Assembly: GCA_017545505.1 (NCBI GenBank) | Contig: JAFWNB010000002.1 | Coordinates: forward strand, 116,327 to 180,326 | Origin: Candidatus Saccharimonadota bacterium | Lineage (GTDB): Bacteria; Patescibacteriota; Saccharimonadia; Saccharimonadales; Saccharimonadaceae | Length of the DNA: 64,000 bases | Direction: 5' to 3' | In this document: one piece after another, positions 39,001-64,000 of the stretch | Layout of the letters: every line of letters begins with the position of its first letter | How positions within the stretch are numbered: position 1 is the stretch's first letter | The notes under the pieces: model-generated | Told to the model about the DNA's origin: nothing | The model's input: only the letters and a program-made list of their open reading frames with translations | Database searches by the model: none | Translations under genes and position numbers: made by a program

Positions 39001-39481
39001 CCGACCAACTAACTCCATGTGGCTCCCAAATAATATTGGAAGTAAATTTGAATTTTAGTTTTGCTCCATCTATTCTGTCCATTTCTGATTCATTCACTAT
39101 AATGTGATAATAATCATAAGGTTCGCCAGAATAATCCGTACTCCAATAAGCTTTTTCGGTAACTATGCAATCGATATCATTACCATTATCATCTTTAGTT
39201 TTTATCATTGCGTTACCGTCACTTGTATTTGAAGTAACGATTTCATTATTCCATATTCTCTCTATACCTTTTTTGCCTAATACTTTCGAAATCGGCTTCC
39301 AGCTATTTCCGTTATCGGTACTAGCCTCAACACATGTTTGCACCTTATAATAACTATTGGCCGGATTATCTACAGCTGAAGCATTAGTTTCGAAAAAACA
39401 TAACATCAAATAAAAACTAGCCACAAAAAAAACGCAAACAAACAACGAAATGTTTTTTTTCAGCCCATCTCTTTTGATCAT
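36032..39481 (-). CDS. Giant secreted surface protein A
   Basis: This 1149-aa exported protein has a signal peptide (about 1-36, ISLFVCVFFVASFYLMLCFF, ending NASA) and beta-rich repeats. One InlB-B-like segment is visible (FEGYTFKGWRV, TYIFAVYERNEFKGYA). Later domains carry paired cysteines (SSSGCKAYFWLKL, ICYQIAFNPHGG). The C-terminal module (KKPSIQVWGGNVYSRNKI, FGSWGELGVIAGNTVTGFA, NGAVIANSLIPNRTYG) is nearly the same as in protein B at 39566. There is no C-terminal anchor. TAAAAT lies about 8 nt before the ATG. Likely an adhesin or matrix protein; its exact role is unknown. Confidence 0.78.
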   Translation of the reverse strand: MIKRDGLKKNISLFVCVFFVASFYLMLCFFETNASAVDNPANSYYKVQTCVEASTDNGNSWKPISKVLGKKGIERIWNNEIVTSNTSDGNAMIKTKDDNGNDIDCIVTEKAYWSTDYSGEPYDYYHIIVNESEMDRIDGAKLKFKFTSNIIWEPHGVSWSAVDYRSVWNGKENTRDYNDAIGFCEQAAGCPINVNTMSITMDGPGDPKFFRDDGFLTIGRVSKSISDYNETPVSIYTGGTSNYSFGITINYAVYVDPTINGNMITVYRCNKNGLACGNAGNSRASADAFIIVTYNSEAQNRALTAFAVDENGKYLNSGIAIDTDNVAYGKKASVSNKSFEGYTFKGWRVKKDSGAIINSNNTYTVNSLTTNTYIFAVYERNEFKGYASVASTSTYSNGTGANTGWKNTNGDAFYEIKNCSSSGCKAYFWLKLKTEKGFGKVSYSVKKQINNGVWTNVTELDHASPFAPSNDTEGSLIKKATELLKPGDIVCYQIAFNPHGGNTEIATEKACAFAAGNYDSSIDIKIRNENAPKWSNYRDDYIYAKPGDRIDLKGTYEPTCQVAYNFKPYTTKVVDENINKGSINNENKTTVQSAVNSILESEINNAFKNTFTLYIKGSVAFSTNYSQMVGDATKVEKELKGDSAYVVSNNNVGKSIRSYAQTNYANNSRYTPKTISFGTNNNKIIATVNIAKISDYADIRIPYNFINRTEIITSDNNIVYAGESKKFEFYIFTSPRQNNETNGEYATRVEDSKRKLELCYNGECYLTDEIATGALNSSGKKEGDNIKKSILANIPDVNAGTEVCVRSAVYPAESGADTNWENKEGNGEWSYSEPVCYTVAKKPSIQVWGGNVYSRNKINTATSIKNHLSGVTDYNIFNKNSTNYVFGSWGELGVIAGNTVTGFASGASLGLNLGNLESINNTSFCNRVPLSFANSNCNQGFVPGIGTSTSSNSIKQDKESIVAKFMKKGDANASGIINLNDETSYYYGKNNELTIPESTIGKGVRKVVHSDKDIIIDGNITYDASDSYTLITDIPKLVIYGKNIKISCKVDNIDALLIADENVTTCYESDDINDSINSRQLKINGAVIANSLIPNRTYGAATGANSIVPAEIINFDPSLYMWGDDNTDNEEQKVDAFETTYLQDLPPRY
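36132..36214 (-). repeat. Inverted repeat 1, copy in gene A
   Basis: This 83-bp segment is identical to the reverse complement of 43547-43629 in gene B. It codes for the end of the shared C-terminal module. Confidence 0.9.
36918..36981 (-). repeat. Inverted repeat 2, copy in gene A
   Basis: This 64-bp segment is identical to the reverse complement of 42642-42705 in gene B, and similarity extends further on both sides with few mismatches. It codes for VAKKPSIQVWGGNVYSR. Confidence 0.9.
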
Positions 39482-50343: not shown

Positions 50344-53300
50344 ATGCCGTTAAATAAACATCTTTTTACTTATTTGCCGTGCCTTTTTGTTTTTGTATTT
50401 ATAAATTTAATTATTAGTTCAACCTTCCTATCTCCTAACACCCACGCCTATAATCTTTCTATTTCTGCTAGTGATATAAGTGTTGATGTAATAAGTGGTA
50501 AAACTTCAATTAAAGAATCAGAAATAGAAATTATCTCAGATTGTAGGGCAGGCTATAACTTCAGTATTTCTACAAGTAATAATCCTAGCTTATATCTCAA
50601 TGGTAACGACTCAGGTTCTGCAGTTTTTAATGCCGTAGATGGTACCAACACACTAGCTAGTTCAAATAACCTAAACAAATGGGGCTATTACTATAACTCA
50701 TTAAGCAGTGACGCACCAACTGAAACATCTATCTTTAGCCCACTTTCTACTACGGAAACAGTACTAAAAACTACTCTAGATACTGCTTCGCCAAATAGTG
50801 ATATAGACGATGCCTTTTCTATCTACTATGGTGTTAATGCTTCTGATTCTGTAGCTCCAGGCAGCTATGCTATGAGTGATGGCAACAATACTAATAGTAC
50901 TAATGGTACTATTAACTACTACGCTACTATGGATAGTAGCTGTATGAGCTACACTGTTAACTTTGATGCCAATGGTGGTACTGGTACTATGAATAATCAA
51001 TCCATCCCTGTATCTATTTCAACTAAATTAAACTCCAATGAATTCACCGCTCCATCTATTGGCTCATCCTACCAAAACGCCAATGGTACGACAATTAATG
51101 GTACTGCTGGCAAGCTCTGGACCTTCTGGGGTTGGAATACTAATGCTGCTGGTACAGGTGACTGGTATAAAGACAGGGAATCAGTACAAGGCCTTGCCTC
51201 TGCCAACCAAACCATCACCCTTTATGCCCAGTGGAAACAAGCTACCCTAGACGATATGCTTACTGCTACTTCTGGCACCAAAACTATTACTCACTCCACT
51301 ATGCAAGATATGTCTGCCGCTATCTGCTTTAATTCAGATATTACTACTAAAGCCGCTCTAGAAGCCGCTAATAAGACTGGTGCAGTAACTCTTACAGATG
51401 ATCGTGATGGTACTACTCGCTCTTATGATGTTTCTAAACTTGCCGATGGTAATTGCTGGATGACTACCAATTTAGCTTTAGGTACTACCAGCGAGGTTAT
51501 TCTTACCTCGGACGATACAGACCTAGATGAAGGAACTACCTTTACCTTGCCAGCTGGAACTACCACATCAAGTACTACTAACACTGCCGCCAGAATACGC
51601 CTGACAAATAATAATGGGACAGACGCTAATGGTGTTTATTACTCTTGGCCAGCCGCTGTAGCTAGCACTACATCTACAAGTGCTACCCCTACTATTTCTA
51701 TTTGTCCAAAGAACTGGGATTTACCTACTAACGCACAGTTTACCACTCTTTCTAGCGCTTCATCTTATTCGTCTTCTAATTCAACCACGGATTTGCCAAG
51801 CCAATTTAAGATAGATGGTGGGTTCACTAACGGTGCCACATTTTACCAAACTACCTATAGTCATTATTGGTCTGCTACATCTTATAGTACTTCAGCAGCT
51901 TGGGGAGCTAGGACTGATACTTCTACTCTAACTACAAGTAGAACTACTGGAACTACCTACGGTGGCAATAAATACTACAGAAAAAATATTAGATGTGTAG
52001 CAAGTAGTGGTAAGGTGACTATACATTATGATAAAAACAATTCAAGCGCTACTGGTAATATGGCAGATCAGACTAATATAGAAATTAATGCTGGGGCCAT
52101 CTCTAGCAATGCCTATACCTTAACTGACCACCGATTTAAAAACTGGAACACCGCTCCAAATGGTAATGGTACCAGTGTGGCAGCTGGTGCGACCTTATCT
52201 AGTCTTGGTCTTTACGATGGACAGGAAATCACTCTTTATGCACAATGGAATCCAGTTTACTACATAGCCTTCAATGCCAACGAATCTAGTGTAGATGGTT
52301 CTATCACTGCTACGGGTACCATGACCAACCAAACCGTCGTAAGAGATACCGCCACCTCCATAAAGACTAATACTTTTGCTCTTACCGGTTATATCTTCCG
52401 TGGTTGGAACACTAGTGCAGATGGTTCAGGAACGTTTTATAGTAATAATCAAACAGTTACTAACCTTACTACAACTGGCAACACTATTACTCTTTATGCA
52501 CAATGGAATCCAGTTTACTACATAGCCTTCAATGCAAACGAATCTAGCGTAGGTGGTACTGCTGGTTCTGCTACTGGCACTATGACAAACCAAACCGTCG
52601 TAAGGGATGTTGCTACCGCTATTAAATCTAGCACATTTGCTTTGAATGGCTACGTTTTCTACGGTTGGAACACTAAGGCCGATGGCACTGGTACATTTTA
52701 TAGTGACGAGCATAAAGTCACTAATCTTACCACTACAGGTAATACAATCACTCTTTATGCTGTTTGGTCTGATGGAGCTTACCTAGATATTGGGTCATAT
52801 GTGAACCGAAAACTAAAGATACTAGCTGGTAATAGCTCAGCTACCTATTCTACTCAGGATAATACCATTACTGCTCTTGTTCGTTCTAACTCTCTACCAA
52901 ACGACTTCACTCCTGCTACCGAAAACACTATCTCGCATAGTTCTTCGCCATATCCAATCTATGCTTGGTATGATTCGACTAACACCACCATCTATTATTA
53001 TTCTGAAGCTACTAATATTATAATGAATAAAAATTCAGGTGCCTTCTTCTATGAAATGCGCGCCTTATCAAATTTGTCCACTATTTCTACTTGGGACACA
53101 GTTAAAGTGACGCAAATGGGTGATATGTTCAGATATACTGGCTACAACGCATCTTCTTTTGTTTTAGATCTTTCCTCTTGGATTGTTTCAAGTGGCGCAA
53201 CAAGTACGCAAACTATGTTTAATTATGCTGGCTGCAATGCAACCACCTTTGCTTTAAACCTTTCCTCTTGGGACACATCCAGCTTGACAAGTACGTCTCA

Positions 53301-54267
53301 AATGTTCTATCGTGCCGGTTTCAATTCATCTTCTTTCACTCTGAATCTCTCTTACTGGGATACATCCAGCGTAACGAATATGAGTAGCATGTTCGCTGAA
53401 GCCGGCGCCAGCGCCACTACCTGGTCTGTTATCGGTCTTTCTTCATGGGATACTTCCAGCTTGACAAACCTAAATGGTACATTCCACTCTGCCGGTGGCA
53501 ATGCGGCTACCTTTACTTTAGACCTTTCCTCTTGGGATGTTTCTAACGTGAAGATTATGAGTCTTACGTTCGCCGGAGTCGGTTCCAGCGCCACCACCTG
53601 GTCTATTGGAAATCTTTCCTCTTGGGATACTTCCAGCGTGACAGACATGAACAGCATGTTCGCCGGAGCCGGTCATAGTGCTACCACCTGGTCTATTGGC
53701 GACATCTCCTCTTGGGATACTTCCAACGTGACAAGCATGGACGGCATGTTCTCCTCTGCTGGTTACAATGCATCTTCTTTCAACCTAGATCTCTCTTCTT
53801 GGGACATTTCTAATGTGAAATACTTGGGTAGAATGTTCCGTGATGCCGGTTATAGTGCCACCACCTGGTCCGTCGGCGATCTTTCTTCTTGGAATACTTC
53901 TAGTGTAACACAAACAACTTACATGTTTTCTTCTGCCGGTTATAACGCACCATCTTTCACCCTAAACCTCTCCTCCTGGGATACTTCTAATGTAACAAAT
54001 ATGTCTTATATGTTCCAAAATGCCGGTTATAACGCATCATCTTTCACCCTAAACCTCTCCTCTTGGAATACTTCTAGTGTGACAAATATGAATAATATGT
54101 TCTCTTCTTCAGGCAACAGCGCCACCACTTGGTCTGTCACTATTCCAAAAACCAACAACGGTACAGCCATCGGTCCAATCACTAACAATACCTCTCGCCT
54201 TTATGGCAATACTACTTCCGTTTATGCCACGCCGCGCACAGGTAAATCCTTCACCATCGCCAACTAA
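50344..54267 (+). CDS. Giant secreted adhesin with FISUMP, InlB-B and DUF285 repeats
   Basis: The 1307-aa exported protein has a signal peptide (to about residue 38, ending THAY) and an N-terminal module shared with the adhesin at 26725 (LSISASDISVDVISGKTSI). Four InlB-B-like repeats follow (each ending in TLYAQWN or TLYAVWS), with a FISUMP domain (KLADGNCWMTTNLALG, CPKNWDLPT) after the first. The last third is about ten BspA-like DUF285 repeats of roughly 30-33 residues (LSSWDTSNVTNMSYMFQNAG). There is no C-terminal anchor. DUF285 proteins form solenoid surfaces that bind host or bacterial partners. The repeated DNA can recombine, so length may vary between strains. Confidence 0.83.
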   Translation: MPLNKHLFTYLPCLFVFVFINLIISSTFLSPNTHAYNLSISASDISVDVISGKTSIKESEIEIISDCRAGYNFSISTSNNPSLYLNGNDSGSAVFNAVDGTNTLASSNNLNKWGYYYNSLSSDAPTETSIFSPLSTTETVLKTTLDTASPNSDIDDAFSIYYGVNASDSVAPGSYAMSDGNNTNSTNGTINYYATMDSSCMSYTVNFDANGGTGTMNNQSIPVSISTKLNSNEFTAPSIGSSYQNANGTTINGTAGKLWTFWGWNTNAAGTGDWYKDRESVQGLASANQTITLYAQWKQATLDDMLTATSGTKTITHSTMQDMSAAICFNSDITTKAALEAANKTGAVTLTDDRDGTTRSYDVSKLADGNCWMTTNLALGTTSEVILTSDDTDLDEGTTFTLPAGTTTSSTTNTAARIRLTNNNGTDANGVYYSWPAAVASTTSTSATPTISICPKNWDLPTNAQFTTLSSASSYSSSNSTTDLPSQFKIDGGFTNGATFYQTTYSHYWSATSYSTSAAWGARTDTSTLTTSRTTGTTYGGNKYYRKNIRCVASSGKVTIHYDKNNSSATGNMADQTNIEINAGAISSNAYTLTDHRFKNWNTAPNGNGTSVAAGATLSSLGLYDGQEITLYAQWNPVYYIAFNANESSVDGSITATGTMTNQTVVRDTATSIKTNTFALTGYIFRGWNTSADGSGTFYSNNQTVTNLTTTGNTITLYAQWNPVYYIAFNANESSVGGTAGSATGTMTNQTVVRDVATAIKSSTFALNGYVFYGWNTKADGTGTFYSDEHKVTNLTTTGNTITLYAVWSDGAYLDIGSYVNRKLKILAGNSSATYSTQDNTITALVRSNSLPNDFTPATENTISHSSSPYPIYAWYDSTNTTIYYYSEATNIIMNKNSGAFFYEMRALSNLSTISTWDTVKVTQMGDMFRYTGYNASSFVLDLSSWIVSSGATSTQTMFNYAGCNATTFALNLSSWDTSSLTSTSQMFYRAGFNSSSFTLNLSYWDTSSVTNMSSMFAEAGASATTWSVIGLSSWDTSSLTNLNGTFHSAGGNAATFTLDLSSWDVSNVKIMSLTFAGVGSSATTWSIGNLSSWDTSSVTDMNSMFAGAGHSATTWSIGDISSWDTSNVTSMDGMFSSAGYNASSFNLDLSSWDISNVKYLGRMFRDAGYSATTWSVGDLSSWNTSSVTQTTYMFSSAGYNAPSFTLNLSSWDTSNVTNMSYMFQNAGYNASSFTLNLSSWNTSSVTNMNNMFSSSGNSATTWSVTIPKTNNGTAIGPITNNTSRLYGNTTSVYATPRTGKSFTIAN
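52231..52747 (+). repeat. Tandem 258-bp repeat coding for InlB-B-like units
   Basis: Two copies with a period of 258 bp. A 47-bp block is identical in both (52231-52277 and 52489-52535), and the rest differs by scattered substitutions. Confidence 0.8.
53090..54120 (+). repeat. Tandem DUF285-coding repeats of about 90-100 bp
   Basis: About ten degenerate units, each with a TCTTGGGATACTTCC-like core (SSWDTS) followed by NVTxMxxMF codons. They are in frame and part of the adhesin gene; they are not a CRISPR array. Confidence 0.85.
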
Positions 54268-54890: not shown

Positions 54891-55862
54891 GTGAATAAGA
54901 AGCTGCGAATATTTGGCTGGATGCTGGCGGTTATTTTAATCGTCATTGCTACTACTATTGTGCTAAATCGCCAATGGATTAAGGATTTTTGGCACGGCCT
55001 ACATTACCAACCTTCGAGCGAAATGCTGGAAATTCGCAAAAACCTTAATCTTACTGATCGTGGTGCCTTTCTCTTTAACGCCTCTCAGCCTAGTTTAAAT
55101 GCTAGCGAAACGTTTAACAGCTATTGCCGTTCTGATGGCCAAGAAATTGCCGTACTTGGCTGTTATACAGAAGACCAAATCTATATATATAATATAGATT
55201 CCGACGAGCTTAAAGGTATTCGCGAATTAACTACCGCTCACGAGCTACTTCATGCGGTATTTGCCAGAATGTCAGATTCAGACAAAAAAGCTCTAAAAGA
55301 CCCCCTAGAAGAAACATATCAAAATAATCAAGACATTTTAAAATCAGATTTAGATACTTATGAAGAATCGGAGCGATTCGAAGAATTATATGTTCGTACC
55401 GGCACCGAAGTCAAAAACCTTCCTGCTTCTCTAGAAAAACACTATGCTGAAATTTTCAAAGATCAAGACAAAATAGTAGATTTTTATAATGGTTACATCA
55501 AGGTATTTCGCGCGCTAGAAGCCGAGCTAGATGCCCTAGCAAATGAAATGTCCGCCTTATCAGACGAAATTTCCGCAAAAACCGCCGATTACGAACAGAG
55601 AATTGATAAATTGAATTCTGATATTTCTGATTTTAACACTTGCGCCAAATCTACCGATTGCTTCAAGAGTGAATATGAGTTCTATTCTCGTCGTAACACT
55701 TTACTCTACGAACAAAACAATCTAGAAAACCTCTATGAAGAAATCAATACTCTCATAGAAACATATAATAGCAAAGTAGAAATCTACAATGCAGATGTTT
55801 TACAAACTGAAAAACTCAATCGTTTAATCAATTCCTCGGCTACGGTTGAAGAATCCTTATGA
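54891..55862 (+). CDS. Membrane-anchored HELLH metalloprotease-like protein with coiled coil
   Basis: The 323-aa protein has an N-terminal membrane helix (about 7-26) and an outer domain with TTAHELLHAVFARM, a zinc-binding HExxH-type motif (H117, E118, H121). A long coiled coil (about 205-310, EAELDALANEMSALSDEISA) contains a CAKSTDC pair. The family is not identified, but a surface zinc peptidase is likely. The start is GTG; TATGAT lies about 10 nt upstream. It overlaps the nuclease gene by 4 nt (ATGA), so the two are made together. Confidence 0.72.
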   Translation: MNKKLRIFGWMLAVILIVIATTIVLNRQWIKDFWHGLHYQPSSEMLEIRKNLNLTDRGAFLFNASQPSLNASETFNSYCRSDGQEIAVLGCYTEDQIYIYNIDSDELKGIRELTTAHELLHAVFARMSDSDKKALKDPLEETYQNNQDILKSDLDTYEESERFEELYVRTGTEVKNLPASLEKHYAEIFKDQDKIVDFYNGYIKVFRALEAELDALANEMSALSDEISAKTADYEQRIDKLNSDISDFNTCAKSTDCFKSEYEFYSRRNTLLYEQNNLENLYEEINTLIETYNSKVEIYNADVLQTEKLNRLINSSATVEESL

Positions 55863-56572
55863 AATTTAAAACTAGACGTATGCTTACAGTAGTTTTTGCG
55901 CTAGGCGCCGCAATCCTCTGGTTTATCATTAATCCAGAGAGTTACGAATCTGTTTTTACCAAGGTAGAAAGCACCAACACAGAACTAAGCAACCCTGATT
56001 CGGGCGCGTTCCTAGCCTCCGAACTTTTAGAAAAATTAGAGGTTAAAGGCCGTGCACCCAAAACTGGCTACAGTCGCGAAAAGTTTTATGATGGCTGGCC
56101 CAATATAGATGGCTGCTCGCTCCGCCAGAGAATCATTAAAAGGGAATTTGGTGATTCTGCGGTTTTAGATGGCTGCGATGTAGTAGCTGGCGAGTTCGAT
56201 GAACCTTATACTGGACAGCACATGATTTTTAAATCACGTAAAGAAATCACGGCTCTCCAAATTGATCATGTCGTCGCGTTATCTGACGCTTGGCAAAAAG
56301 GAGCTCAGTATAAAGATGAGGACACCCGCTATGCTATTGCTACTGATCCTCTAAACCTTCTCGCCGTAGATGGCCCCGCTAATCAGCAAAAATCCGATGG
56401 CGATGCCGCCACATGGCTCCCAAAAAACAAAAAATTCCGTTGCCAATACGTGGCGCGTCAAGTATCTGTTAAATACAAATACGGTCTCTGGGTCACACAA
56501 GCCGAAAAAGATGCCATTTCGCGTATTCTTTCAGCTTGCCCAAATGAATTAAGCGTAGGCATCACAAAATAG
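55859..56572 (+). CDS. Exported HNH-family nuclease (DUF1524/GmrSD-C-like)
   Basis: The 237-aa protein has an N-terminal signal or anchor helix (about 8-24) and a ββα-metal nuclease core: LQIDHVVALSDAW (136-148) with the catalytic DH, then NLLAVDGPANQQKSDGDA (166-183), which carries the conserved N-x-K-S-D, and WLPKNKKFRC. This matches DUF1524/HNH proteins that are secreted by Gram-positive bacteria. Being outside the cell, it could degrade DNA or RNA for nucleotide uptake, fitting a bacterium unable to make nucleotides. It is co-translated with the protease-like gene. Confidence 0.82.
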   Translation: MKFKTRRMLTVVFALGAAILWFIINPESYESVFTKVESTNTELSNPDSGAFLASELLEKLEVKGRAPKTGYSREKFYDGWPNIDGCSLRQRIIKREFGDSAVLDGCDVVAGEFDEPYTGQHMIFKSRKEITALQIDHVVALSDAWQKGAQYKDEDTRYAIATDPLNLLAVDGPANQQKSDGDAATWLPKNKKFRCQYVARQVSVKYKYGLWVTQAEKDAISRILSACPNELSVGITK

Positions 56573-56581
56573 TGCTTTAGA

Positions 56582-56654
56582 GGACCGTAAGCTCGGCCAG
56601 ACCGCCCCTTGGGACGCGGACGACCCGCAGGGTCGAGCGGCCTCGAGCGTGTCC
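56582..56654. repeat. GC-rich palindromic element, intergenic
   Basis: A GC-rich block in AT-rich DNA begins GGAC and ends GTCC, with inner stems such as GACCC-GCA-GGGTC and CTCGGCC/GGCCTCGAG. It resembles in design the recX and truB elements (GGAC...CCCG...GGG...CGAG...GTCC). It lies just after the HNH nuclease stop and could also end that transcript. Confidence 0.5.
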
Positions 56655-56714
56655 GAAAAAGTACTATTCTGTGGTATATATGGTATAATATATTGGAATT
56701 AAGTGGAGTAAAAC

Positions 56715-57398
56715 ATGAAAAAATATGTTTGGTGGAGTTCTATCATCGCTGTTATCTTAATCGTCGGTGCGTTTTTACTAGGGCGTTTTGCCTTCCCAAA
56801 CACCCTATCTAGCCTGCCAACCCCAGAATTGGAGGAAGGGCAGCGCGGTGAGCTCGGTATAGATAAAAACGTGAATGAATCTACTATCGATCAATATCTT
56901 AATCGTGGCGACTCGGTCTATCGCGATATGCGTATGCTAAAAGACCCAGGTAATTACGAAGCTATTGGCGGCGATTCTTATCTTTCTGGGTTTGTAGATG
57001 GTTTCGAAGTGGTGCCTTTCCCGTATATTGTAAATGTAGAAGGCCTTCCAGAAGCTGTTGGTGACACTTATAATGGCAAGACATTATTTAGGCAGCATTC
57101 AGACGGTTCATATACTGCAAATTACGAAGAATCAACCCAAATCCTAGAAGCGCTCTTTCCTAAGGATAAAACCATTTTCCTGATGTGCGGTGGCGGTGGT
57201 TACTCTGGCATGATGAAAAATCTCTTAGTGACACTCGGTTGGGACGAGAATAAGATATATGACGTCGGTGGCTACTGGTTCTACGAGGGCGATCATAATA
57301 TAGAAGTAAAACGTGTATTAGCAGACGGCTCAGTAGTATACGACTTTTATAAAGTACCATATCACGAAATTGATTTTGACAGTCTAACAAGGAACTAA
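56715..57398 (+). CDS. Membrane-anchored rhodanese-like protein
   Basis: The 227-aa protein has one N-terminal helix (about 5-27), a Pro/Glu linker and a rhodanese-like domain. The active loop is FLMCGGGGYSGMMKNLLVTLGW with a cysteine in the usual place, and IYDVGGYWFYEGDHN follows. Rhodaneses carry sulfur on that cysteine or sense redox state. TATAAT (56684-56689) and GGAG precede the ATG. The next gene starts 1 bp after its stop. Confidence 0.8.
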   Translation: MKKYVWWSSIIAVILIVGAFLLGRFAFPNTLSSLPTPELEEGQRGELGIDKNVNESTIDQYLNRGDSVYRDMRMLKDPGNYEAIGGDSYLSGFVDGFEVVPFPYIVNVEGLPEAVGDTYNGKTLFRQHSDGSYTANYEESTQILEALFPKDKTIFLMCGGGGYSGMMKNLLVTLGWDENKIYDVGGYWFYEGDHNIEVKRVLADGSVVYDFYKVPYHEIDFDSLTRN

Positions 57399-57399
57399 A

Positions 57400-57900
57400 G
57401 TGAGTAAAGATAAGAAAAAACAGATGGGCATTCTTGGGCTAGCTATTGCCCTAGTCGTCGTGTTAGCCGGCTCCATTATCTTTGTCGGTGCCGTTAGCGG
57501 CTGGTTTGACGATCCAAAAATTTCATTAGACGAAGAATACTATTGTGAAAACTCTTCCTGCGACGGCAGTTTCACTAATCTTACCGCCGAAGAATATGAA
57601 GCATTAATAAATAATCACAAATCATTTGTGATATTTGTAGATCAAGGTGGATGTCATACCGCAGATAGACTTCGTGGCTATATTGAGGACTATTCTCGCG
57701 AGTCTGGCATTAAGTTCTACCGCATCATGTTTGCCGACGCTAAAGATTCTTCTTTACATGAGTACGTAAAATACTACCCATCCGCAGCAATCATCTCAAA
57801 AGGTAAGCCTGTTGTTTGGCTCCACGCCGACAGCGATGAAGACGCAGAGAGATATAATAATTACGATGAATTTAAGGCTTGGATTCAAAACTATTTATAG
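57400..57900 (+). CDS. Membrane-anchored thioredoxin-like protein with single Cys
   Basis: The 166-aa protein has an N-terminal helix (about 9-32) and a thioredoxin-like outer domain: SFVIFVDQGGCHTADRLRGYI has one cysteine where CxxC is expected, then IKFYRIMFADAK and YYPSAAIISKGKPVVWL with the cis-Pro region. A monothiol form suggests a chaperone or isomerase role more than an oxidase. The start is GTG, one base after the rhodanese-like stop; the pair may act together on extracellular thiols. Confidence 0.72.
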   Translation: MSKDKKKQMGILGLAIALVVVLAGSIIFVGAVSGWFDDPKISLDEEYYCENSSCDGSFTNLTAEEYEALINNHKSFVIFVDQGGCHTADRLRGYIEDYSRESGIKFYRIMFADAKDSSLHEYVKYYPSAAIISKGKPVVWLHADSDEDAERYNNYDEFKAWIQNYL

Positions 57901-57902
57901 AT

Positions 57903-57937
57903 AAAAAAATAAGTTCCTAGATAGGAACTTATTTTTT
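57903..57937. terminator. Bidirectional terminator
   Basis: AAAAAATAAGTTCC pairs with GGAACTTATTTTTT around TAGATA. It closes both the thioredoxin-like operon and the left arm of the mirrored surface locus. Confidence 0.92.
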
Positions 57938-57945
57938 AAGAAACG

Positions 57946-58872
57946 TTATTTTTTGCGATTTTTTGCCTTTAATACCAACCAGATAATTAGCATTACTATT
58001 GCAAATACAATAATAAACAGCAGCCATAGCGGACAGACGATAACCAATTTCTCAATTGTAGATATTTCGTCGAATAATCTAACAGTTTGTTTGGCTTTAA
58101 AAATTCCTATTGGCGGCAAATCGCAAGTTTCATTTCGTACGTACTCGGTTTCGGGCATGACGATCTTAGTATCTGGCTCTTCTTCGTTTGTGCATATTTC
58201 AGAATCTGAAAAGAGTGGCCATACTTGCAAAACGTATTCGGCGTCAGTATGAACATTGCCACTATTTTTTACTCTAGAGAATGCTTCCAGAGGAGAAGTA
58301 AATACGAATGAAGGAATATTATTTTCTAAGATTATACCTTCTTTCCTCGTCTCCCCATCCACATTAGCATAAACAATCGCACCTATCGCCGTAATACTCG
58401 ATACAGATAAACCTTTGCCCTCCTGATCGGAACCTAGGTCAGTTGTATCTTGTGCCATAATTGTCGCATACTGCCCTCCAGCAGGCGCATCAACTGGAAC
58501 ATTAATTGTAAAGCCAATATCCTCTTTTTCGCCTGGTTGCAATATACCTTCGGTTTTATCGAGCGTAATCCAATCAGCAATCTGAGTATAAGCATTCTCT
58601 TGGTCAAAAATTGGACTATAGTTTTCATCTGAAACACCATACGGTGTCACATATAATATGTATTTAGTCGCCTTTACGGAATCTGAAGGATTTGAAATAT
58701 ACATCGACGATCTATATGTTTGGCCAGCTTCGAGCATTATCCTTTGAGTCGGCGGACCAAAAACTAAACCCGCATCATAATGTATCTCTTCAGCGGCAGA
58801 AACTGGGATATAGTTTATTCCAAGAGCCAATAAAGAAACAACGAATATTATCACTTTTTTTATTAGATTCAT
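57946..58872 (-). CDS. WxLIP/DUF916-like membrane protein (left module)
   Basis: The 308-aa protein has a signal peptide (ending VSA), an Ig-like domain starting AGLVFGPPTQRIMLEAGQTY, GFTINVPVDAPAGGQYATIM and a second beta domain, then a C-terminal membrane helix (LWLLFIIVFAIVMLIIWLVL) and a basic tail. This is the layout of WxL-interacting (DUF916) proteins, which dock cell-surface proteins. It is the last gene of the left module and is a paralogue, gene for gene, of 62594-63520. AAAGGAGG precedes the ATG. Confidence 0.8.
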   Translation of the reverse strand: MNLIKKVIIFVVSLLALGINYIPVSAAEEIHYDAGLVFGPPTQRIMLEAGQTYRSSMYISNPSDSVKATKYILYVTPYGVSDENYSPIFDQENAYTQIADWITLDKTEGILQPGEKEDIGFTINVPVDAPAGGQYATIMAQDTTDLGSDQEGKGLSVSSITAIGAIVYANVDGETRKEGIILENNIPSFVFTSPLEAFSRVKNSGNVHTDAEYVLQVWPLFSDSEICTNEEEPDTKIVMPETEYVRNETCDLPPIGIFKAKQTVRLFDEISTIEKLVIVCPLWLLFIIVFAIVMLIIWLVLKAKNRKK

Positions 58873-58905
58873 AGACCTCCTTTAGTTTATTAGTATTTAG
58901 TCATT

Positions 58906-59454
58906 TTATTGCGCTATATCGCAGAGAAAGTTTTTCTTTGAAAGATATTCTTCGAAATCGGTTATGGTCTTTTTGCTTACGACTTCATTTCCAAGCATCA
59001 AGAGGGGCGCATTGTCATATGCAAATTTTTCACCATTCACCGAAAGGACCATTTTACCAGTATTATCCACAAACGTATATGTTGGCAATAAACCATCTTG
59101 TGAGATATTTCGTTGTCCAATATAAATGTTGTAGTTGGTTTGGAGCATATTTGCAAATAATTCTGCATCGTTAGCATTATCAAACTGTTTTGAAACTGTC
59201 AGATTTAGGCTAGAAGCAATTTGATTGGTAAATTCTACCTTTATTTTGTAATCGACGTTATCATAGCTTGAATTAAGGAACAACGGATATAATTCGCTAT
59301 CACCATTTATTCTGCAAGTTAAATATGATATTTTGTCATCTTGCACCTTTAATATTTCAGTACTAGTCCTTGGCCAAAATAGAAATAAGATCAAGAATAC
59401 AACCAAAAACACTAGAAAAGAAATGCAGATTATTCTTTTAGATTTGGTATCCAT
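58906..59454 (-). CDS. Small anchored protein of the left module
   Basis: The 182-aa protein has an N-terminal helix (about 7-28) and an outer domain with two conserved cysteines (SYLTCRING, NFLCDIAQ), a helix DANDAELFANMLQTNYN, and PTYTFVDNTGKMVLSVNG. No family is recognised. Its counterpart at 62003-62551 has the same length, order of motifs and Cys positions. It follows the surface protein gene after a terminator, so it should be expressed at a lower level. Confidence 0.72.
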   Translation of the reverse strand: MDTKSKRIICISFLVFLVVFLILFLFWPRTSTEILKVQDDKISYLTCRINGDSELYPLFLNSSYDNVDYKIKVEFTNQIASSLNLTVSKQFDNANDAELFANMLQTNYNIYIGQRNISQDGLLPTYTFVDNTGKMVLSVNGEKFAYDNAPLLMLGNEVVSKKTITDFEEYLSKKNFLCDIAQ

Positions 59455-59480
59455 CGATTATGCTCCTTAAATTTATTATT

Positions 59481-59514
59481 AAAAATGCCGCCCACATACA
59501 TCGACGGCATTTTT
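59481..59514 (-). terminator. Terminator after the left surface protein gene
   Basis: AAAAATGCCG (59481-59490) pairs with CGGCATTTTT (59505-59514). Transcribed on the minus strand it ends in T5. It probably lets only part of the transcripts reach the two membrane genes. Confidence 0.85.
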
Positions 59515-59529
59515 AAAACTTACCTATAA

Positions 59530-60177
59530 TTAGCTATTTGCAGTTAAGACATACTTAACATAACCATCATAGACACCCTGAGCTTGGTTTGCGGCTACCC
59601 AAACACGATAGGATGGTTGAAGAGTAGCTTCAGAAGCTGGGTTCGCGCCAGTAGCGGTAATTACAGCAGAAGCAGTGCTTGGTACAGCCGACCAGTCGGC
59701 AAATGCTGCTGTAGCACCATTGGTTCCAGTTGCAGTTACTTTAAATGCCCATTGAGATGGAGTGCTAGAAGTGGCTGTGCCAGTTGCGATGCCATCAGTT
59801 TCTTGGGTGCTGGTAGTCTTTTTCATCCAGCTTCGACCAGTCGTTGCATCTTCACCGGTAGCACCAGCAACACCTTGAGCGGTCACTGTGTAGCCGTTGG
59901 CATTGTTACAAGAATATTTAATTGTAGAGGATGAGCCAGTCCAAGCGGTTGCACCAGTAGTGCCATCACTTGTAACTAACGTACCAGGGTTAACTGTAGC
60001 CGTTAGTTCTGCACCTGTAACGGTAGCATCAGCCGCACTAGAACCAGTACTGATCGCACAAACAGACGAAACAGTCACCTGTACGTGATCAATGATTGGT
60101 GAATTAGCTGCAAAAGCACCAAATGCTGGCATAGCAGCGAGAGCTACGGCTGCACCTGCGATTGCTAATTTTTTCAT
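59530..60177 (-). CDS. Small secreted surface protein, left module
   Basis: The 215-aa protein has a signal peptide (MKKLAIAGAAVALAAMPAFG, cleavage after AFA) and a Ser/Thr/Ala/Gly-rich beta mature part with two cysteines (SSVCAIS, KYSCNN) and a C-terminal strand PSYRVWVAANQAQGVYDGYV followed by KYVLTA. The layout recalls WxL or pilin-like repeat subunits, but no precise family is named. The first 24 codons, the Shine-Dalgarno GGAG and the 5' UTR are identical to those of 61248-61910 because they lie inside the inverted repeat. No promoter is visible directly upstream in the present orientation; only read-through from the recombinase gene could reach it. Confidence 0.78.
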   Translation of the reverse strand: MKKLAIAGAAVALAAMPAFGAFAANSPIIDHVQVTVSSVCAISTGSSAADATVTGAELTATVNPGTLVTSDGTTGATAWTGSSSTIKYSCNNANGYTVTAQGVAGATGEDATTGRSWMKKTTSTQETDGIATGTATSSTPSQWAFKVTATGTNGATAAFADWSAVPSTASAVITATGANPASEATLQPSYRVWVAANQAQGVYDGYVKYVLTANS

Positions 60178-60227
60178 ATTATTTTTCTCCTTCTGCTAAG
60201 CAGAATTAATTTATATTTGTGTTAAAA
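60107..60227 (-). repeat. Left arm of the 120-bp inverted repeat
   Basis: This 121-bp arm is the reverse complement of 61199-61318, differing only by one extra A in the run after GGAG. It holds, in order from the centre, the 5' UTR, a palindrome TTCTGCTTAGCAGAA (60191-60205), the Shine-Dalgarno site and the first 24 codons of the left surface protein. Confidence 0.97.
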
Positions 60228-60228
60228 A

Positions 60229-61062
60229 CTATCCATATTTATTAAATAGCTCCTCTAAATGCCCCTCAAAACCATGTAGATATCGCTCAGTGGTAGCTAT
60301 AGACTCATGACCGATCATTTCCTTAATTTCTTCCACTGAGGCGCCTTTAAGCTGCAAATTAGTTGCAAATGAATGCCTTAAGGCGTGCGGATAAAAATCA
60401 TCAAACCCAGCCTGCCTGAATGGTTTTTTAAGCTTTTTTCGTATGGTGGTAGTAGTGGGTGGCTCGCCGTTTAGGGTTGCAAATAGATATCCATTAGATA
60501 AGTTATTATTATTAATATATTCACGCAGCTCGCAAAGAGTATGTGTTTTTATGTAAACTTCTCGTGGCTTACGTCCTTTACCGATAAACTGGATTCGTCG
60601 TCCATTAAAATCTGATAATTTAAGACGCGTTAATTCTGCAATTCTCATACCAGTCTCAAACATAATTCTAATCATTAATTCTGTCTCGGGATTTGCATAA
60701 GAAATAGCTCTTTCTATCTCGTTGATGGAAAAATACTTACGCCTCGCGTCGCCTTCTTTTAGTTTATTAATCAGGGAAATCTTTAGTGGTATTTTTAAAC
60801 CCATTTCGCGGTAATACCTTACCATTGCCATTATGACGGCATTATAAGTGTTGATTGAGCTTGGTGAAGTTTTATTATTTACTAATGTTGTCACCCATTT
60901 ATTAAACACTTCATTAGTTAAGTATTGTAAGCTATCCAAGCTAGTCGTATTAATAAACCTTTGCAAAACATTACGTTTATTGTTCATAGTTGCGGATGTC
61001 ATCATTCTGACTTTTTCGCAATAGTCTAAATAGACCAAAACTTGCTTTTTAATTTCTCTCAT
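60229..61062 (-). CDS. Tyrosine recombinase of the invertible segment
   Basis: This 277-aa integrase-family recombinase has an N-terminal SAM-like core-binding domain (about 1-100) and a catalytic domain with all six active residues: R140 (GMRIAEL), K162 (GKGRKPR), H226 and R229 (HALRHSFAT), H252 (GHESI) and the nucleophile Y261 (TTERYLHG). The size is Xer-like. The stop codon sits 1 bp from the left inverted-repeat arm. AAAGGAG lies before the ATG, and a weak minus-strand promoter (TTTCCA, 17 bp, GATAAT, 61108-61080) is present. It is most likely the enzyme that flips the segment it lies in. Confidence 0.93.
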   Translation of the reverse strand: MREIKKQVLVYLDYCEKVRMMTSATMNNKRNVLQRFINTTSLDSLQYLTNEVFNKWVTTLVNNKTSPSSINTYNAVIMAMVRYYREMGLKIPLKISLINKLKEGDARRKYFSINEIERAISYANPETELMIRIMFETGMRIAELTRLKLSDFNGRRIQFIGKGRKPREVYIKTHTLCELREYINNNNLSNGYLFATLNGEPPTTTTIRKKLKKPFRQAGFDDFYPHALRHSFATNLQLKGASVEEIKEMIGHESIATTERYLHGFEGHLEELFNKYG

Positions 61063-61079
61063 TTTAACTCCTTTTTTTG

Positions 61080-61108
61080 ATTATCCTACCTTAAAAAGCA
61101 TGTGGAAA
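61080..61108 (-). promoter_or_regulatory. Possible recombinase promoter
   Basis: On the minus strand TTTCCA (61108-61103), a 17-bp spacer and GATAAT (61085-61080) precede the recombinase ATG by 17 nt. It is weaker than the rightward promoter in the same segment. Confidence 0.5.
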
Positions 61109-61148
61109 ACTCTAGTGCTAAAAAGCTTAAAATAACATTAAAAAATGC

Positions 61149-61177
61149 TTGACAACGCAATTATGCTTATGTAAAAT
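61149..61177 (+). promoter_or_regulatory. Strong promoter inside the invertible segment
   Basis: TTGACA (61149-61154), a 17-bp spacer and TAAAAT (61172-61177) point rightward to the secreted protein gene at 61248. The promoter lies between the inverted repeats, so inversion would aim it at the left module. Confidence 0.85.
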
Positions 61178-61198
61178 AGAAATTGTTAAAAGGTCATA

Positions 61199-61318
61199 TT
61201 TTAACACAAATATAAATTAATTCTGCTTAGCAGAAGGAGAAAATAATATGAAAAAATTAGCAATCGCAGGTGCAGCCGTAGCTCTCGCTGCTATGCCAGC
61301 ATTTGGTGCTTTTGCAGC
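61199..61318 (+). repeat. Right arm of the 120-bp inverted repeat
   Basis: 120 bp, reverse complement of 60107-60227 with a single 1-nt length difference. It includes the palindrome TTCTGCTTAGCAGAA (61221-61235), the Shine-Dalgarno site and the signal-peptide codons of the right surface protein. Similarity stops abruptly at codon 24. Confidence 0.97.
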
Positions 61319-61910
61319 GGATTACAACCCAATCGTTGATACCGTAAAAGTAACGATTAATGATTCGTGTGCTATGTCTGCTGCTGAAAGTGGCGGTACA
61401 GCTAGTCAAGCTGGCGGTGTTTATGCTAAAACCGTAGACGCTGGTACGTTGATTAACCCAACTGACTGGGATGGTGGTTCTGCTGGTGGATCCTCTACTC
61501 TCGCTAAAACTTATACCTTTAGCTGTAACAACCAAGGTGGTTGGAAAGTAACCGCGCAAGGTGTAGCTGGCACGACTGGCACGCAAGCAACAACTGCTCA
61601 GACAAATATGGTTGGGGCAAATGGTAAAACCATAGCTACTGGTACAGCTACTACTGGTAACACTTCTCAATGGGCATTTAATATCACGGCAACTGGTGCA
61701 ACTGTTGAAAGTGGTTATGATGGCGCCGCTACACCTGCCGCTTGGGCTCAGATTCCAGCCGCAGCTACTACTATCATCCAAAGCAATAATGCTGCTCCAG
61801 TTTCCGAAGCTACCTTTACTCCTTCCTATCGTGTATGGGTAAGCCCAACTCAGGAAGCTGACACCTACACTGGTTATGTTAAGTATGTCTTAACTGCTCC
61901 TCTTAACTAA
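61248..61910 (+). CDS. Small secreted surface protein, right module
   Basis: The 220-aa protein has the same signal peptide as its mirror gene and a mature part of the same design but clearly different sequence: DSCAMSA and FSCNNQGGWKVTAQG hold the two cysteines, and PSYRVWVSPTQEADTYTGYV then KYVLTAPLN ends it. In the present orientation it is driven by the promoter at 61149-61177, so this is the module expected to be ON. A terminator follows. Likely an abundant coat or pilus-like subunit; function inferred from context. Confidence 0.8.
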   Translation: MKKLAIAGAAVALAAMPAFGAFAADYNPIVDTVKVTINDSCAMSAAESGGTASQAGGVYAKTVDAGTLINPTDWDGGSAGGSSTLAKTYTFSCNNQGGWKVTAQGVAGTTGTQATTAQTNMVGANGKTIATGTATTGNTSQWAFNITATGATVESGYDGAATPAAWAQIPAAATTIIQSNNAAPVSEATFTPSYRVWVSPTQEADTYTGYVKYVLTAPLN

Positions 61911-61924
61911 TAGTTTGTAGGATT

Positions 61925-61957
61925 AAAAATACCACCGGGTGACTGGTGGTATTTTTT
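61925..61957 (+). terminator. Terminator after the right surface protein gene
   Basis: AAAAATACCACC (61925-61936) pairs with GGTGGTATTTTT (61945-61956). It occupies the same place as the terminator of the left module. Confidence 0.88.
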
Positions 61958-62002
61958 CAATAGAGGTGGTATCATATAAAGTAAAGAACAGAGGAGGAAT
62001 AA

Positions 62003-62551
62003 ATGAGCAAGAAAAACAACCGAATATACAAAATATCTCTTGCAATAATCTTACTCATTATTGCGATTATTATAATTTTAATGCTAATACCTGGAAAGAC
62101 GACCAATATTTCGGAGTACGAAGAAAAAACCGAATCGCATTATCTAAGCTGCACCAGAAGAGGAGGCTTTGATTATACTCTCTTAAAAAATCTTATAGAA
62201 GATGTAAACTACGACATTAAAATTAAATATACAGATGATAAAATTAAGGAGTTAAATATAGAAATTAATAAAGATTTTCAGGATAAAAAATCCGCAGAGG
62301 CTTTTGTTAACGAGCTGCATGGAAACTTCAACGAATACATAGGAAAAAATAGCTTGGCCGATAGCAAATTAACTCCAACTTATAATTATGTGGATGGCGT
62401 CGGCAAAGTAACCATTTTTATGGACGGTCAATCATTTAATAGGCGAACCGCACCCCTAGTTTTTCTGAATGACGAGGCCATAGAAGACGCATCGCTCGAT
62501 AGCTTGTATGGATTCTACAAAAGAAGTGGCTTTTCTTGTAGTAAGAAGTAA
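62003..62551 (+). CDS. Small anchored protein of the right module
   Basis: The 182-aa protein has an N-terminal helix (about 9-30, ISLAIILLIIAIIIILMLIP) and an outer domain with conserved cysteines (HYLSCTRRGG, GFSCSKK) and the shared PTYNYVDGVGKVTIFMDG segment. It is the paralogue of 58906-59454 with equal length. GAGGAGG precedes the ATG. Unknown family; its place suggests a partner of the secreted protein or of the WxLIP-like protein. Confidence 0.72.
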   Translation: MSKKNNRIYKISLAIILLIIAIIIILMLIPGKTTNISEYEEKTESHYLSCTRRGGFDYTLLKNLIEDVNYDIKIKYTDDKIKELNIEINKDFQDKKSAEAFVNELHGNFNEYIGKNSLADSKLTPTYNYVDGVGKVTIFMDGQSFNRRTAPLVFLNDEAIEDASLDSLYGFYKRSGFSCSKK

Positions 62552-62593
62552 AGATATGATATAATAACTATAATAATTATCTAAAGGAGGTTT

Positions 62594-63520
62594 ATGAAAT
62601 TCTGTAAGAAAGTTTTTATTTCTGTCGCTGCGCTAACTCTAATGTTTGGATTAAATATAAATACCGTTTTTGCTGATGGGGAAGCCAGTGAAAGTTTAGT
62701 GTTTGGTCCTACATCGCAAAGAATAAGTCTAGAGCCAGGAGAAACATATAGGGGGAGTATTTATATATCTAATCCGGCTTATTCTACGGAAGACGCAAAA
62801 TACTCACTTAGTGTGTCGCCGTACGGTGTATCGAACGAAAACTATGATCCGGTTTTTGATCAAAAAACTACATACACGCAAATTGTAGATTGGATAACTC
62901 TAGATGAAACAGAAGGCTCCGTAAAACCAAACGAAAAAAAGGATATTGGTTTCACTATCAATGTTCCGTATAATGCACCAGCGGGTGGCCAATATGCTAC
63001 GATTATGGCTCAGGATGTGACCTATCAAGGACATAATACCAGCGGCGATGTTTTAGAAATTACAAATATCACCGCGATTGGTTCGATTATTGTGGCTGAT
63101 GTAGCCGGTGAAACCATAGAAAAAGGCGAAATCCTCGAAAATAGCGTCCCGTCATTTTTGTTTTCTAGCCCCTTAACCACTAATGCGAGAGTTAAAAACC
63201 ATGGAAATGTACATACCGACGCTGAATATGTCCTACAAGTCTGGCCATTATTCTCCAATGAAGAAATATGCACTAATGAAGAGAAGCCAGACACCGATGT
63301 TGTTTTGCCCGATACAGAAAAATATCATACGCAAAACTGTGATTTACCGATGATTGGTATTTTTAGAGCCAAACAAACAGTAAAAATCTTTGGAGAAACC
63401 TCAATTACTGAACAAACAGTATTTGTCTGTCCTCTATGGCTACTAGCTATAATTATATTTGCAATTGTTCTAATAATAATGTGGCTAATAATGAAATCAA
63501 GATCACGAAAGAATAGCTAA
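62594..63520 (+). CDS. WxLIP/DUF916-like membrane protein (right module)
   Basis: The 308-aa protein has a signal peptide (ending VFA), LVFGPTSQRISLEPGETY, GFTINVPYNAPAGGQYATIM, a second beta domain with NVHTDAEYVLQVWPLF and two Cys-containing segments, then a C-terminal helix (LWLLAIIIFAIVLIIMWLIM) and a basic end. It is the same length as its left paralogue. TATAAT and AAAGGAGG precede the ATG, so it has some expression of its own. Probably anchors or assembles the secreted protein at the surface. Confidence 0.8.
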   Translation: MKFCKKVFISVAALTLMFGLNINTVFADGEASESLVFGPTSQRISLEPGETYRGSIYISNPAYSTEDAKYSLSVSPYGVSNENYDPVFDQKTTYTQIVDWITLDETEGSVKPNEKKDIGFTINVPYNAPAGGQYATIMAQDVTYQGHNTSGDVLEITNITAIGSIIVADVAGETIEKGEILENSVPSFLFSSPLTTNARVKNHGNVHTDAEYVLQVWPLFSNEEICTNEEKPDTDVVLPDTEKYHTQNCDLPMIGIFRAKQTVKIFGETSITEQTVFVCPLWLLAIIIFAIVLIIMWLIMKSRSRKNS

Positions 63521-63532
63521 TTAATTACATCT

Positions 63533-63568
63533 AAAATAACACCGCCTTAAGGGGCGGTGTTATTTTTT
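63533..63568 (+). terminator. Terminator of the right module
   Basis: AAAATAACACCGCC pairs with GGCGGTGTTATTTT around TTAAGG. The T-run is within the 3' arm. Confidence 0.9.
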
Positions 63569-63590
63569 ATAAAAAAGTTCAAAAAAGGGG

Positions 63591-63619
63591 TTGATTTTTT
63601 TAAAAAACTGCGCTATAAT
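63591..63619 (+). promoter_or_regulatory. 23S rRNA promoter
   Basis: TTGATT (63591-63596), a 17-bp spacer and TATAAT (63614-63619). An upstream A/T-rich stretch could be an UP element. It begins 23 bp after the previous terminator. Confidence 0.85.
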
Positions 63620-63892
63620 AGAGAAAGTTGAAGCAAGTCACCTTTTGTGACCTCTGTAAAAAGATAAGAAAAGCGAGGGAATCTTTTGAGGTCGCTTTAG
63701 CGACTTTCAAATCTTCTTTTAAGACTTTTCAATTAACAATTTGGAAACGATAAAGATTTTAAAGACGGAACGAGTAATCGAATATCGAAAATCGTAGGAA
63801 GTGAGCGAAATAAAGACTTGTTTTTATTTCCGAACTGATGCCCGATTTTCTTGTTTTTAAACATCGATTGCTAGTTAAGTCAATGCATAAAA
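63620..63892 (+). other. Leader of the 23S rRNA transcript
   Basis: This is about 270 bp without a gene. It holds small hairpins (GTCAC-CTTTT-GTGAC, GTCGC-TTTA-GCGAC) and AT-rich sequence that probably forms the 5' half of the 23S processing stem. No 16S or spacer tRNA is present. Confidence 0.6.
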
Positions 63893-64000
63893 AGGTAATT
63901 AAGGGCACTGATAGTGGATGCCTTGACAATCAATACCGATGAAGGCCGTAGAAGTCTGCGATAAGCCTCGGGGATCTGACAGCGAGAAATGATCCGGGGA
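63893..64000 (+). rRNA. 23S ribosomal RNA, 5' end (partial)
   Basis: The start is recognised by GGTAATTAAGGGCAC...GTGGATGCCTTG, then CCGATGAAGGCCGT and CTGCGATAAGCCTCGGGGA, all conserved in the first 100 nt of bacterial 23S rRNA. It continues past the window. The exact 5' end is uncertain by a few bases. Confidence 0.93.

What the first reader, a model, noticed from the sequence alone, without database searches (positions are those of the whole stretch)
60107..61318. Recombinase-encoding DNA inversion switch with a movable promoter
Two 120-bp inverted repeats (60107-60227 and 61199-61318), identical but for one base, enclose 971 bp that carry a complete tyrosine recombinase and a consensus promoter pointing outward. 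The repeats cover the 5' UTR, ribosome site and signal-peptide codons of the two flanking genes, so a crossover anywhere in them keeps both reading frames whole. Flipping would turn the strong promoter from the right gene to the left one. The logic is like hin-type flagellar switching, but uses a tyrosine recombinase and appears to control surface proteins in a CPR-like bacterium. I know of no description of this arrangement.
Basis: partly seen in the sequence, partly recalled or inferred. Interest (0 to 1): 0.96.

Follow-up and report, generated by a model that had tools for sequence, protein, structure and literature searches.

The report
Self-flipping promoter choosing bacterial surface coats
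In the genome of a tiny bacterium (likely a Saccharibacterium), two near-identical inverted repeats enclose a gene for a predicted DNA-flipping enzyme and one predicted strong promoter, placed between two alternative sets of likely surface-protein genes; relatives carry the same promoter unit pointing either way, so the segment would likely flip to switch the cell from one surface coat to the other.

Summary
Repeats 60107-60227 and 61199-61318 differ by one inserted base and enclose 971 bp with a complete tyrosine recombinase (REC) and one outward TTGACA-17-TAAAAT promoter, between two divergent three-gene operons. Relatives show more. (1) Within the repeats lies a core, TTTATATTT(T)GTGTTAAA: two copies in the 707-kb genome, both here; in 17 of 20 genus genomes with a close REC against 5 of 154 others. 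In some relatives the exact repeat is only 19-27 bp around this core, the likely crossover site. (2) Each of 14 loci with two or more arms has exactly one promoter module; it points away from a conserved gene block in 10, towards it in 3, 1 unplaced. (3) REC lies outside the flipping part in 9 of 13 loci, inside in 4, this one included. (4) The 17 switch RECs placed on a tree form one clade (100/99) beside integrases from viral contigs: probably a domesticated phage integrase. Best reading: a site-specific promoter inversion switch alternating two surface operons. No reads were available; inversion in cells is inferred. Each step is known elsewhere; I found no description in Saccharibacteria in the open-access papers searched.

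The parts
60107..60227 (.). left inverted repeat (5' UTR, ribosome site and signal-peptide codons of the left surface gene)
61199..61318 (.). right inverted repeat (same parts of the right surface gene)
60210..60226 (+). candidate crossover site, left: TTTATATTTGTGTTAAA
   Evidence: only 2 copies in the genome
61200..61216 (-). candidate crossover site, right: TTTATATTTGTGTTAAA
60228..61198 (.). predicted invertible segment (971 bp between the repeats)
60229..61062 (-). tyrosine recombinase REC (277 aa); its stop codon abuts the left repeat and it reads towards the left, promoterless operon
61149..61177 (+). movable promoter TTGACA-17-TAAAAT, now serving the right operon (predicted)
61101..61109 (+). 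TGTGGAAAA box upstream of the promoter; TGTGGAAA lies 36-48 bp before the -35 in 13 of 20 modules, at 61 and 74 bp in two, not found in five
61184..61190 (+). TGTTAAA element facing the site's TTTAACA; exact in 17 of 20 promoter modules, absent from the promoterless arms listed
60191..60205 (-). 5'-UTR hairpin before the ribosome site, left arm
61221..61235 (+). 5'-UTR hairpin before the ribosome site, right arm
59530..60177 (-). left surface gene (215 aa, predicted signal peptide; the family model resembles pilins weakly)
58906..59454 (-). left membrane protein, 182 aa (membrane segment read from sequence)
57946..58872 (-). left WxLIP-like protein, 308 aa
61248..61910 (+). right surface gene (220 aa)
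62003..62551 (+). right membrane protein, 182 aa
62594..63520 (+). right WxLIP-like protein, 308 aa
61925..61956 (+). terminator-like hairpin after the right surface gene
   Evidence: read by eye; not among the 4 sites listed
59480..59515 (-). terminator-like hairpin after the left surface gene
   Evidence: read by eye; not among the 4 sites listed
54891..57900 (+). conserved gene block (323, 237, 227, 166 aa) that borders the switch in many relatives and fixes 'towards/away'

Best explanation
This is very likely a site-specific DNA inversion switch: the encoded tyrosine recombinase is predicted to cut and rejoin a 17-bp site at the inner end of each repeat, which would flip the 971-bp segment and turn its single promoter from the right surface operon to the left one. 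Shown in sequence: the repeats, the two sites, the complete recombinase with its conserved catalytic residues, one promoter module, the two paralogous divergent operons, and the same module in both orientations in relatives. Inferred: that REC acts on these sites, that the promoter is active, that flipping happens within a population, and that the operon without the promoter is silent or only weakly expressed by read-through from REC, which points into it with no terminator-like site listed in between. The products are predicted secreted proteins (a pilin-like fold is a weak match) with a WxLIP-like membrane partner, so the outcome would be phase variation of the cell surface, perhaps relevant to attachment to bacterial hosts, to phages or to animal immunity (speculative). 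REC was probably recruited once from a phage integrase.
For: Site: 2 copies in the genome, both at the repeats, 0 for the reversed control; about 0.0009 expected by base composition. In the genus 22 of 174 genomes carry it; with REC of 49% identity or more 17 of 20, otherwise 5 of 154, p = 1.8e-16; with the looser REC set (E <= 1e-35, 38 of 174) 18 of 38 against 4 of 136, p = 1.1e-10 (the 49% line was drawn after seeing the list, and related genomes are not independent). Core: in L046, L107 and L106 the exact repeat is 19, 21 and 27 bp, in L036 28+20 bp. One module per locus in 14 of 14 loci with two or more arms. Direction relative to the gene block: 10 away, 3 towards (L103/G072, L106/G175, L110/G077), 1 with no block on its stretch (L114). 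G072 resembles a mirror image: REC on the other strand, promoter at the other end. R140, H226, R229, H252, Y261 and K162 are invariant in 24 rows (catalytic roles recalled). Site length and REC tree: 3 changes, shuffled mean 6.2, 4-10 of 500 as low (18 of 23 rows labelled). In 14 of 14 genomes with two or more listed sites all copies share the 17- or 18-bp form (read). L042, L044 and L113 have three sites and one promoter.
Against: No reads, PCR or second assembly of this species: inversion was not seen in one strain. Three genomes with close REC lack the exact motif (G164 and G092 have one- or few-base variants, G177's contig ends after REC). Five have the motif without a close REC (G079, G128, G025, G176; G083 has a 40% REC on another contig): loss of REC, incomplete assembly, or a second role of the site in the 5' UTR. 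The bare promoter scan is at chance level. Orientation differences lie between species and could be rare ancient events. G175's REC is broken by two stops, so one of the three 'towards' loci is probably dead. The four one-arm modules that can be placed (L034, L116, L118, L119) all point away.
Confidence: 0.87

Rival explanations
1. A fossil switch: the segment inverted in ancestors, but in this genome it is locked, and the repeats stay alike through gene conversion or recent duplication.
For: Loci with one site, one promoter and no REC on the fetched stretch exist (L116, L118, L119), and G175 has a broken REC, so locking seems to occur in the genus.
Against: Here REC is complete with its conserved residues and both sites are identical; the repeats are long and near-perfect, not decayed.
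Confidence: 0.08
2. No switch: the operons arose by inverted duplication; the conserved 17-18 bp is only a 5'-UTR or regulator element, and REC is an integrase remnant.
For: The site lies in the 5' UTR beside a hairpin with compensatory changes (found in 37 of 41 arms) and survives in a few genomes without a close REC.
Against: Arms without a promoter keep the site; REC and site co-occur strongly; one promoter per locus in either orientation; of four window proteins scanned against PHROGs only REC matches.
Confidence: 0.03
3. Inversion occurs, but mainly by general homologous recombination between the 120-bp repeats, with REC unimportant.
For: The repeats are about 120 bp and nearly identical here, 149 bp in L040.
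Against: Relatives with only 19-28 bp of exact repeat keep one-promoter switches of the same anatomy; of L046, L107, L106 and L036 three have an open REC beside them, L106 a broken one.
Confidence: 0.04

Closest known systems
Hin/hix flagellar phase switch of Salmonella (anatomy recalled; mentioned in passages seen of PMC11868660)
   Same: Recombinase gene lies inside the segment that it flips; a promoter in the segment serves a gene next to it.
   Different: Hin is a serine recombinase; here a tyrosine recombinase (PF00589). Here two operons would alternate directly, with no separate repressor gene seen.
vpma locus / Xer1 of Mycoplasma agalactiae (PMC2268961, abstract and passages seen)
   Same: Tyrosine recombinase beside the locus, recombination sites in the 5' UTRs of surface genes, one promoter shared by several genes; resembles the relatives with REC outside and with three sites.
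   Different: Lipoproteins of a mollicute; recombinase adjacent, not inside; relatedness of REC to Xer1 not tested.
fimS/FimB-FimE of E. coli (recalled; mentioned in passages seen of PMC2784873, and as a 314-bp switch in the abstract start of PMC9993118)
   Same: Tyrosine recombinases invert a short promoter-bearing segment; the promoter-only segments of relatives (203-478 bp) are of similar size.
   Different: One operon ON/OFF instead of two alternating operons.
cwpV switch / RecV of Clostridioides difficile (PMC2784873, abstract and passages seen)
   Same: XerC/XerD-family recombinase and short inverted repeats upstream of a cell-wall protein gene.
   Different: There the promoter lies outside the inverted part and a terminator is proposed in the OFF transcript.
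WxL gene clusters of Bacilli (PMC9772566, passages seen; structures 9i1y, 9i25)
   Same: The third gene's model matches WxLIP of Enterococcus faecium best, E 1.3e-13.
   Different: No WxL Pfam match for 27 surface-protein members; no large WxL protein recognised in the operons.

Membership tests
Invertible-promoter phase switch (inverton) | Inverted repeats flank a segment with an outward promoter next to target genes | tested here: met
Invertible-promoter phase switch (inverton) | Site-specific recombinase encoded in or near it, with a matching site | tested here: met
   REC present; site co-occurs with REC (action on the site not shown)
Invertible-promoter phase switch (inverton) | Both orientations in related lineages | tested here: met
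   10 away, 3 towards of 14 loci, 1 unplaced
Invertible-promoter phase switch (inverton) | Both orientations within one population | not testable with these tools
   no reads; one genome per species
Tyrosine recombinase family | Catalytic domain with R, K, H-x-x-R, H, Y | tested here: met
   (roles recalled)
Hin-type serine invertases | Serine recombinase catalytic domain | tested here: not met
   only PF00589 at 1e-3
XerC/XerD chromosome resolvases | Score over the NCBIfam equivalog cut-off | tested here: not met
   13 families matched, none over its cut-off (XerC 130.4 of 335.15, XerD 108 of 329.6)
XerC/XerD chromosome resolvases | Acts at a dif site | tested here: inconclusive
   recalled dif core, 10 matches against 7 in the control
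Vpma-type locus | One promoter, several surface genes, sites in 5' UTRs, recombinase nearby | tested here: met
   (works like; not homology)
Vpma-type locus | Recombinase orthologous to Xer1 | not tested
   Xer1 was not compared
WxL cluster | DUF916/WxLIP protein | tested here: inconclusive
   fold match strong; by sequence 14 of 23 members at E <= 0.1, best 1.9e-4; the window's right-hand member is below the cut-off (14.8 of 27.3 bits)
WxL cluster | Small and large WxL-domain proteins | tested here: inconclusive
   no WxL Pfam match in 27 members at E <= 0.5; pilin folds rank first but weakly
Prophage or integrative element | Phage structural genes beside the integrase | tested here: inconclusive
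   no near phage match to 57900-63600; of 4 window proteins scanned only REC matches PHROGs; the other neighbours were not scanned against PHROGs

The most novel reading that the evidence does not exclude
Saccharibacteria turned a phage integrase into a dedicated coat switch: a two- to three-way selector of diverse, pilin-like surface operons in which, in some species, the recombinase rides in the flipping segment and is always transcribed into the operon that the strong promoter has just left, so that recombinase expression and the alternative coat are coupled; a second repeat core with another integrase lineage (G024, G193) would be an independent recruitment of the same idea.
Probability: 0.35. 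Interest if true: 0.88.

Novelty: new variant of a known kind. Interest (0 to 1): 0.76.

Why it matters
Saccharibacteria are reduced epibionts whose attachment to host bacteria is only now becoming testable. A locus with one promoter and two or three alternative surface operons, found in a fair share of a genus, would mean that even a 0.7-Mb genome pays for programmed surface diversity. The family gives a ready comparative series (recombinase outside, inside, broken or missing; two or three sites; both orientations) for asking how a phage integrase becomes an invertase, and it names an 18-bp site that can be read in existing metagenomes.

Tried and rejected
Phage origin of the locus itself: no near match of 57900-63600 in the phage records; by protein, REC matches 561 phage records, all below 60% identity and the ten listed at 25-27%. 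The exact site in IMG/VR contigs: 16 and 34 contigs, one match each and never a pair, so no sign there that phages carry the switch.

A dif-like identity of the site (its GTGTTAAAT end recalls the XerD arm of dif, from memory): a recalled dif core with up to 3 mismatches gave 10 matches against 7 for the control; inconclusive.

Literature (open-licence PMC papers only): 'Saccharibacteria' + 'phase variation' 4 papers; passages of two (PMC6851277, PMC12954397) show the terms unrelated, two (PMC11119845, PMC8932003) were seen in the listing only; + 'inverton' 0 papers. Broader searches: I looked at the listed part only, 20 of 324, 20 of 359, 10 of 523, 9 of 9, 12 of 1997 and 8 of 14, and no title or abstract start there describes such a switch in this group. 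PMC12206443 (passages) speaks of type IV pili and host binding, not of inversion.

Full report
What was checked. The only difference between the repeats is one extra A between ribosome site and ATG. Each repeat is the start of a surface gene; left and right genes form mirror-image operons: a predicted secreted protein (215/220 aa, 112 of 209 aligned residues identical, the first 24 all identical), a membrane protein (53 of 179) and a WxLIP-like protein (189 of 306). A terminator-like hairpin follows each surface gene (read by eye, not listed by the scan), so the surface protein is probably made in excess of the other two (inference).

The organism. The window is the end of contig C4 of a 707-kb genome of 94% completeness.

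The site. Comparing arms from relatives shows what is kept when the rest drifts. The exact repeat is 19 bp in L046, 21 in L107, 27 in L106 and 28+20 in L036. What stays is AATTAnTTTATATTT(T)GTGTTAAA. In 41 arms found with a slightly looser pattern the base before TTTATA varies freely (21 A, 13 T, 5 C, 2 G) and the main variant of the core is three or four T, 19 and 22 arms (the pattern itself fixes most core letters). In the 14 genomes with two or more listed sites all copies share the variant (read). Two copies exist in the window's genome, both here. Tyrosine recombinases need matching crossover regions (established knowledge), so this is the best candidate for the crossover.

Site and recombinase go together. 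Of 174 genus genomes 22 carry the exact motif and 38 a REC relative at E <= 1e-35. Taking REC at 49% identity or more, a line drawn after seeing the list, 17 of 20 have the motif against 5 of 154; with all 38, 18 against 4 of 136. The exceptions are told under evidence against.

One promoter, either way. A strict search for TTGACA, a -10 box and the site in 27 stretches found 20 modules; the 14 loci with two or more recognised arms have exactly one each (the second-type loci L040 and L137 were not in that search, and L115, with a diverged second arm, is counted as one-arm). The distance from -10 to the far end of the site is 37-41 bp in 11 loci; other entries there were measured from wider ends or are not of this type. 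Taking the conserved neighbours (323-, 237-, 227-, 166-aa genes, or those present) as fixed, the promoter points away from them in window, L036, L038, L042, L044, L045, L046, L107, L109 and L113, towards them in L103, L106 and L110; L114 has no such neighbour on its stretch. Of the six one-arm modules four can be placed and all point away. These are different species, so this shows inversion over evolution, not in one culture. On the REC tree the direction label needs 2 changes among 12 labelled rows; G175 (L106) was left out because its REC is broken.

Recombinase inside or outside. Of the 13 such loci with REC on the stretch, REC stands outside, after the conserved neighbours, in 9 (L036, L042, L044, L045, L046, L106, L107, L110, L113) and between the sites in 4 (window, L038, L103, L109). 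In seven of the nine the promoter-bearing segment is 203-478 bp, in L042 and L113 about 1.4 kb. On the tree the inside/outside label needs 4 changes in 17 labelled rows; 6 of 23 rows were not labelled (ambiguous or not switch loci), and five 'outside' labels (G110, G009, G035, G133, G177) rest on gene order at contig ends. So REC seems to have moved more than once; the direction of the moves is inferred. In the window and in L103 REC reads straight towards the promoterless operon. After a flip both change ends, so REC would always point at the operon that lacks the strong promoter. In L038 and L109 the layout differs (REC runs the same way as the promoter). Whether read-through gives low-level expression or coupling is untested.

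Two or three ways. L042, L044 and L113 have three sites and one promoter, which would allow more than two states, as in vpma (PMC2268961, passages).

Where REC came from. Of 80 IMG/VR loci kept, 12 full-length ones have REC relatives at 36-46% identity. In L145 and L151, and in the bacterial locus L039, terminase and portal genes lie near (the two L144 proteins scanned gave other hits). In a tree of 40 proteins the 17 switch RECs form one clade (100/99; all of 200 bootstrap trees), while the 12 viral and 11 other genomic rows interleave. Left out of that tree: G133, G177, the second G081 copy, broken G175, and several distant genomic hits. One recruitment from phage integrases is the simplest reading; the root is a midpoint and the reverse is not excluded. 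L040 and L137 show a second type: repeats of 149 and of 66+19 bp with another core and other surface genes, and a REC of 36 and 34% identity inside; L040's REC groups with a viral one (93/79). L137's REC has a stop inside.

The products. The WxLIP-like model (pLDDT 86) matches E. faecium WxLIP first (1.3e-13), fimbrial chaperones among the next at about 1e-9; sequence support is below cut-offs. The surface protein model (pLDDT 77) belongs to a family with two invariant cysteines and resembles pilins only weakly. A surface role follows from the predicted signal peptide and the partner; host binding, phage escape or immune escape are guesses.

Further elements. A hairpin with a stem of 5 or more pairs lies before the ribosome site in 37 of 41 arms, with stems such as CTGC/GCAG, CCAC/GTGG, CTGG/CCAG and CCGTT/AACGG, i.e. 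compensatory changes. The promoter-side arm bears TGTTAAA facing the site's TTTAACA (exact in 17 of 20 modules); promoterless arms lack it in the listing. It could be an extra recombinase site that biases direction (idea).

What is known. Hin, fim, cwpV and vpma show the single steps in other bacteria; none of the papers or listings seen describes it in Saccharibacteria or other CPR. Hence 'new variant of a known kind'.

Noticed in passing
window 36032-39481 (-) and 39566-43729 (+): Two divergent giant predicted surface genes (1149 and 1387 aa) share inverted exact stretches (83, 64, 32, 26 nt; e.g. 36132-36214/43547-43629), so recombination could swap their ends.
   Followed up: no
window 63889-64000: The contig ends in the start of a 23S rRNA gene (Rfam RF02541): the switch lies beside a ribosomal RNA gene.
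   Followed up: partly
L040 10110-10258/11243-11391; L137 7689-7774/8867-8952: A second type of surface switch with another repeat core and another integrase lineage inside it.
   Followed up: partly
L104, L105, L034, L035, L115, L108, L117, L120 (G110, G009, G035, G133, G083, G176): Contigs end within 130 bp of a site in 8 of the 36 motif places, as expected if assemblers break at repeats or mixed orientations.
   Followed up: partly
L103 9313-10305 and L042 14185-15330: Long surface-like proteins with a hydrophobic C-terminal stretch sit inside two flipping segments as extra cargo.
   Followed up: no
window 26725-30786 and 50344-54267: Very large predicted surface proteins (1353 and 1307 aa) that match the surface-gene profile in part.
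   Followed up: no
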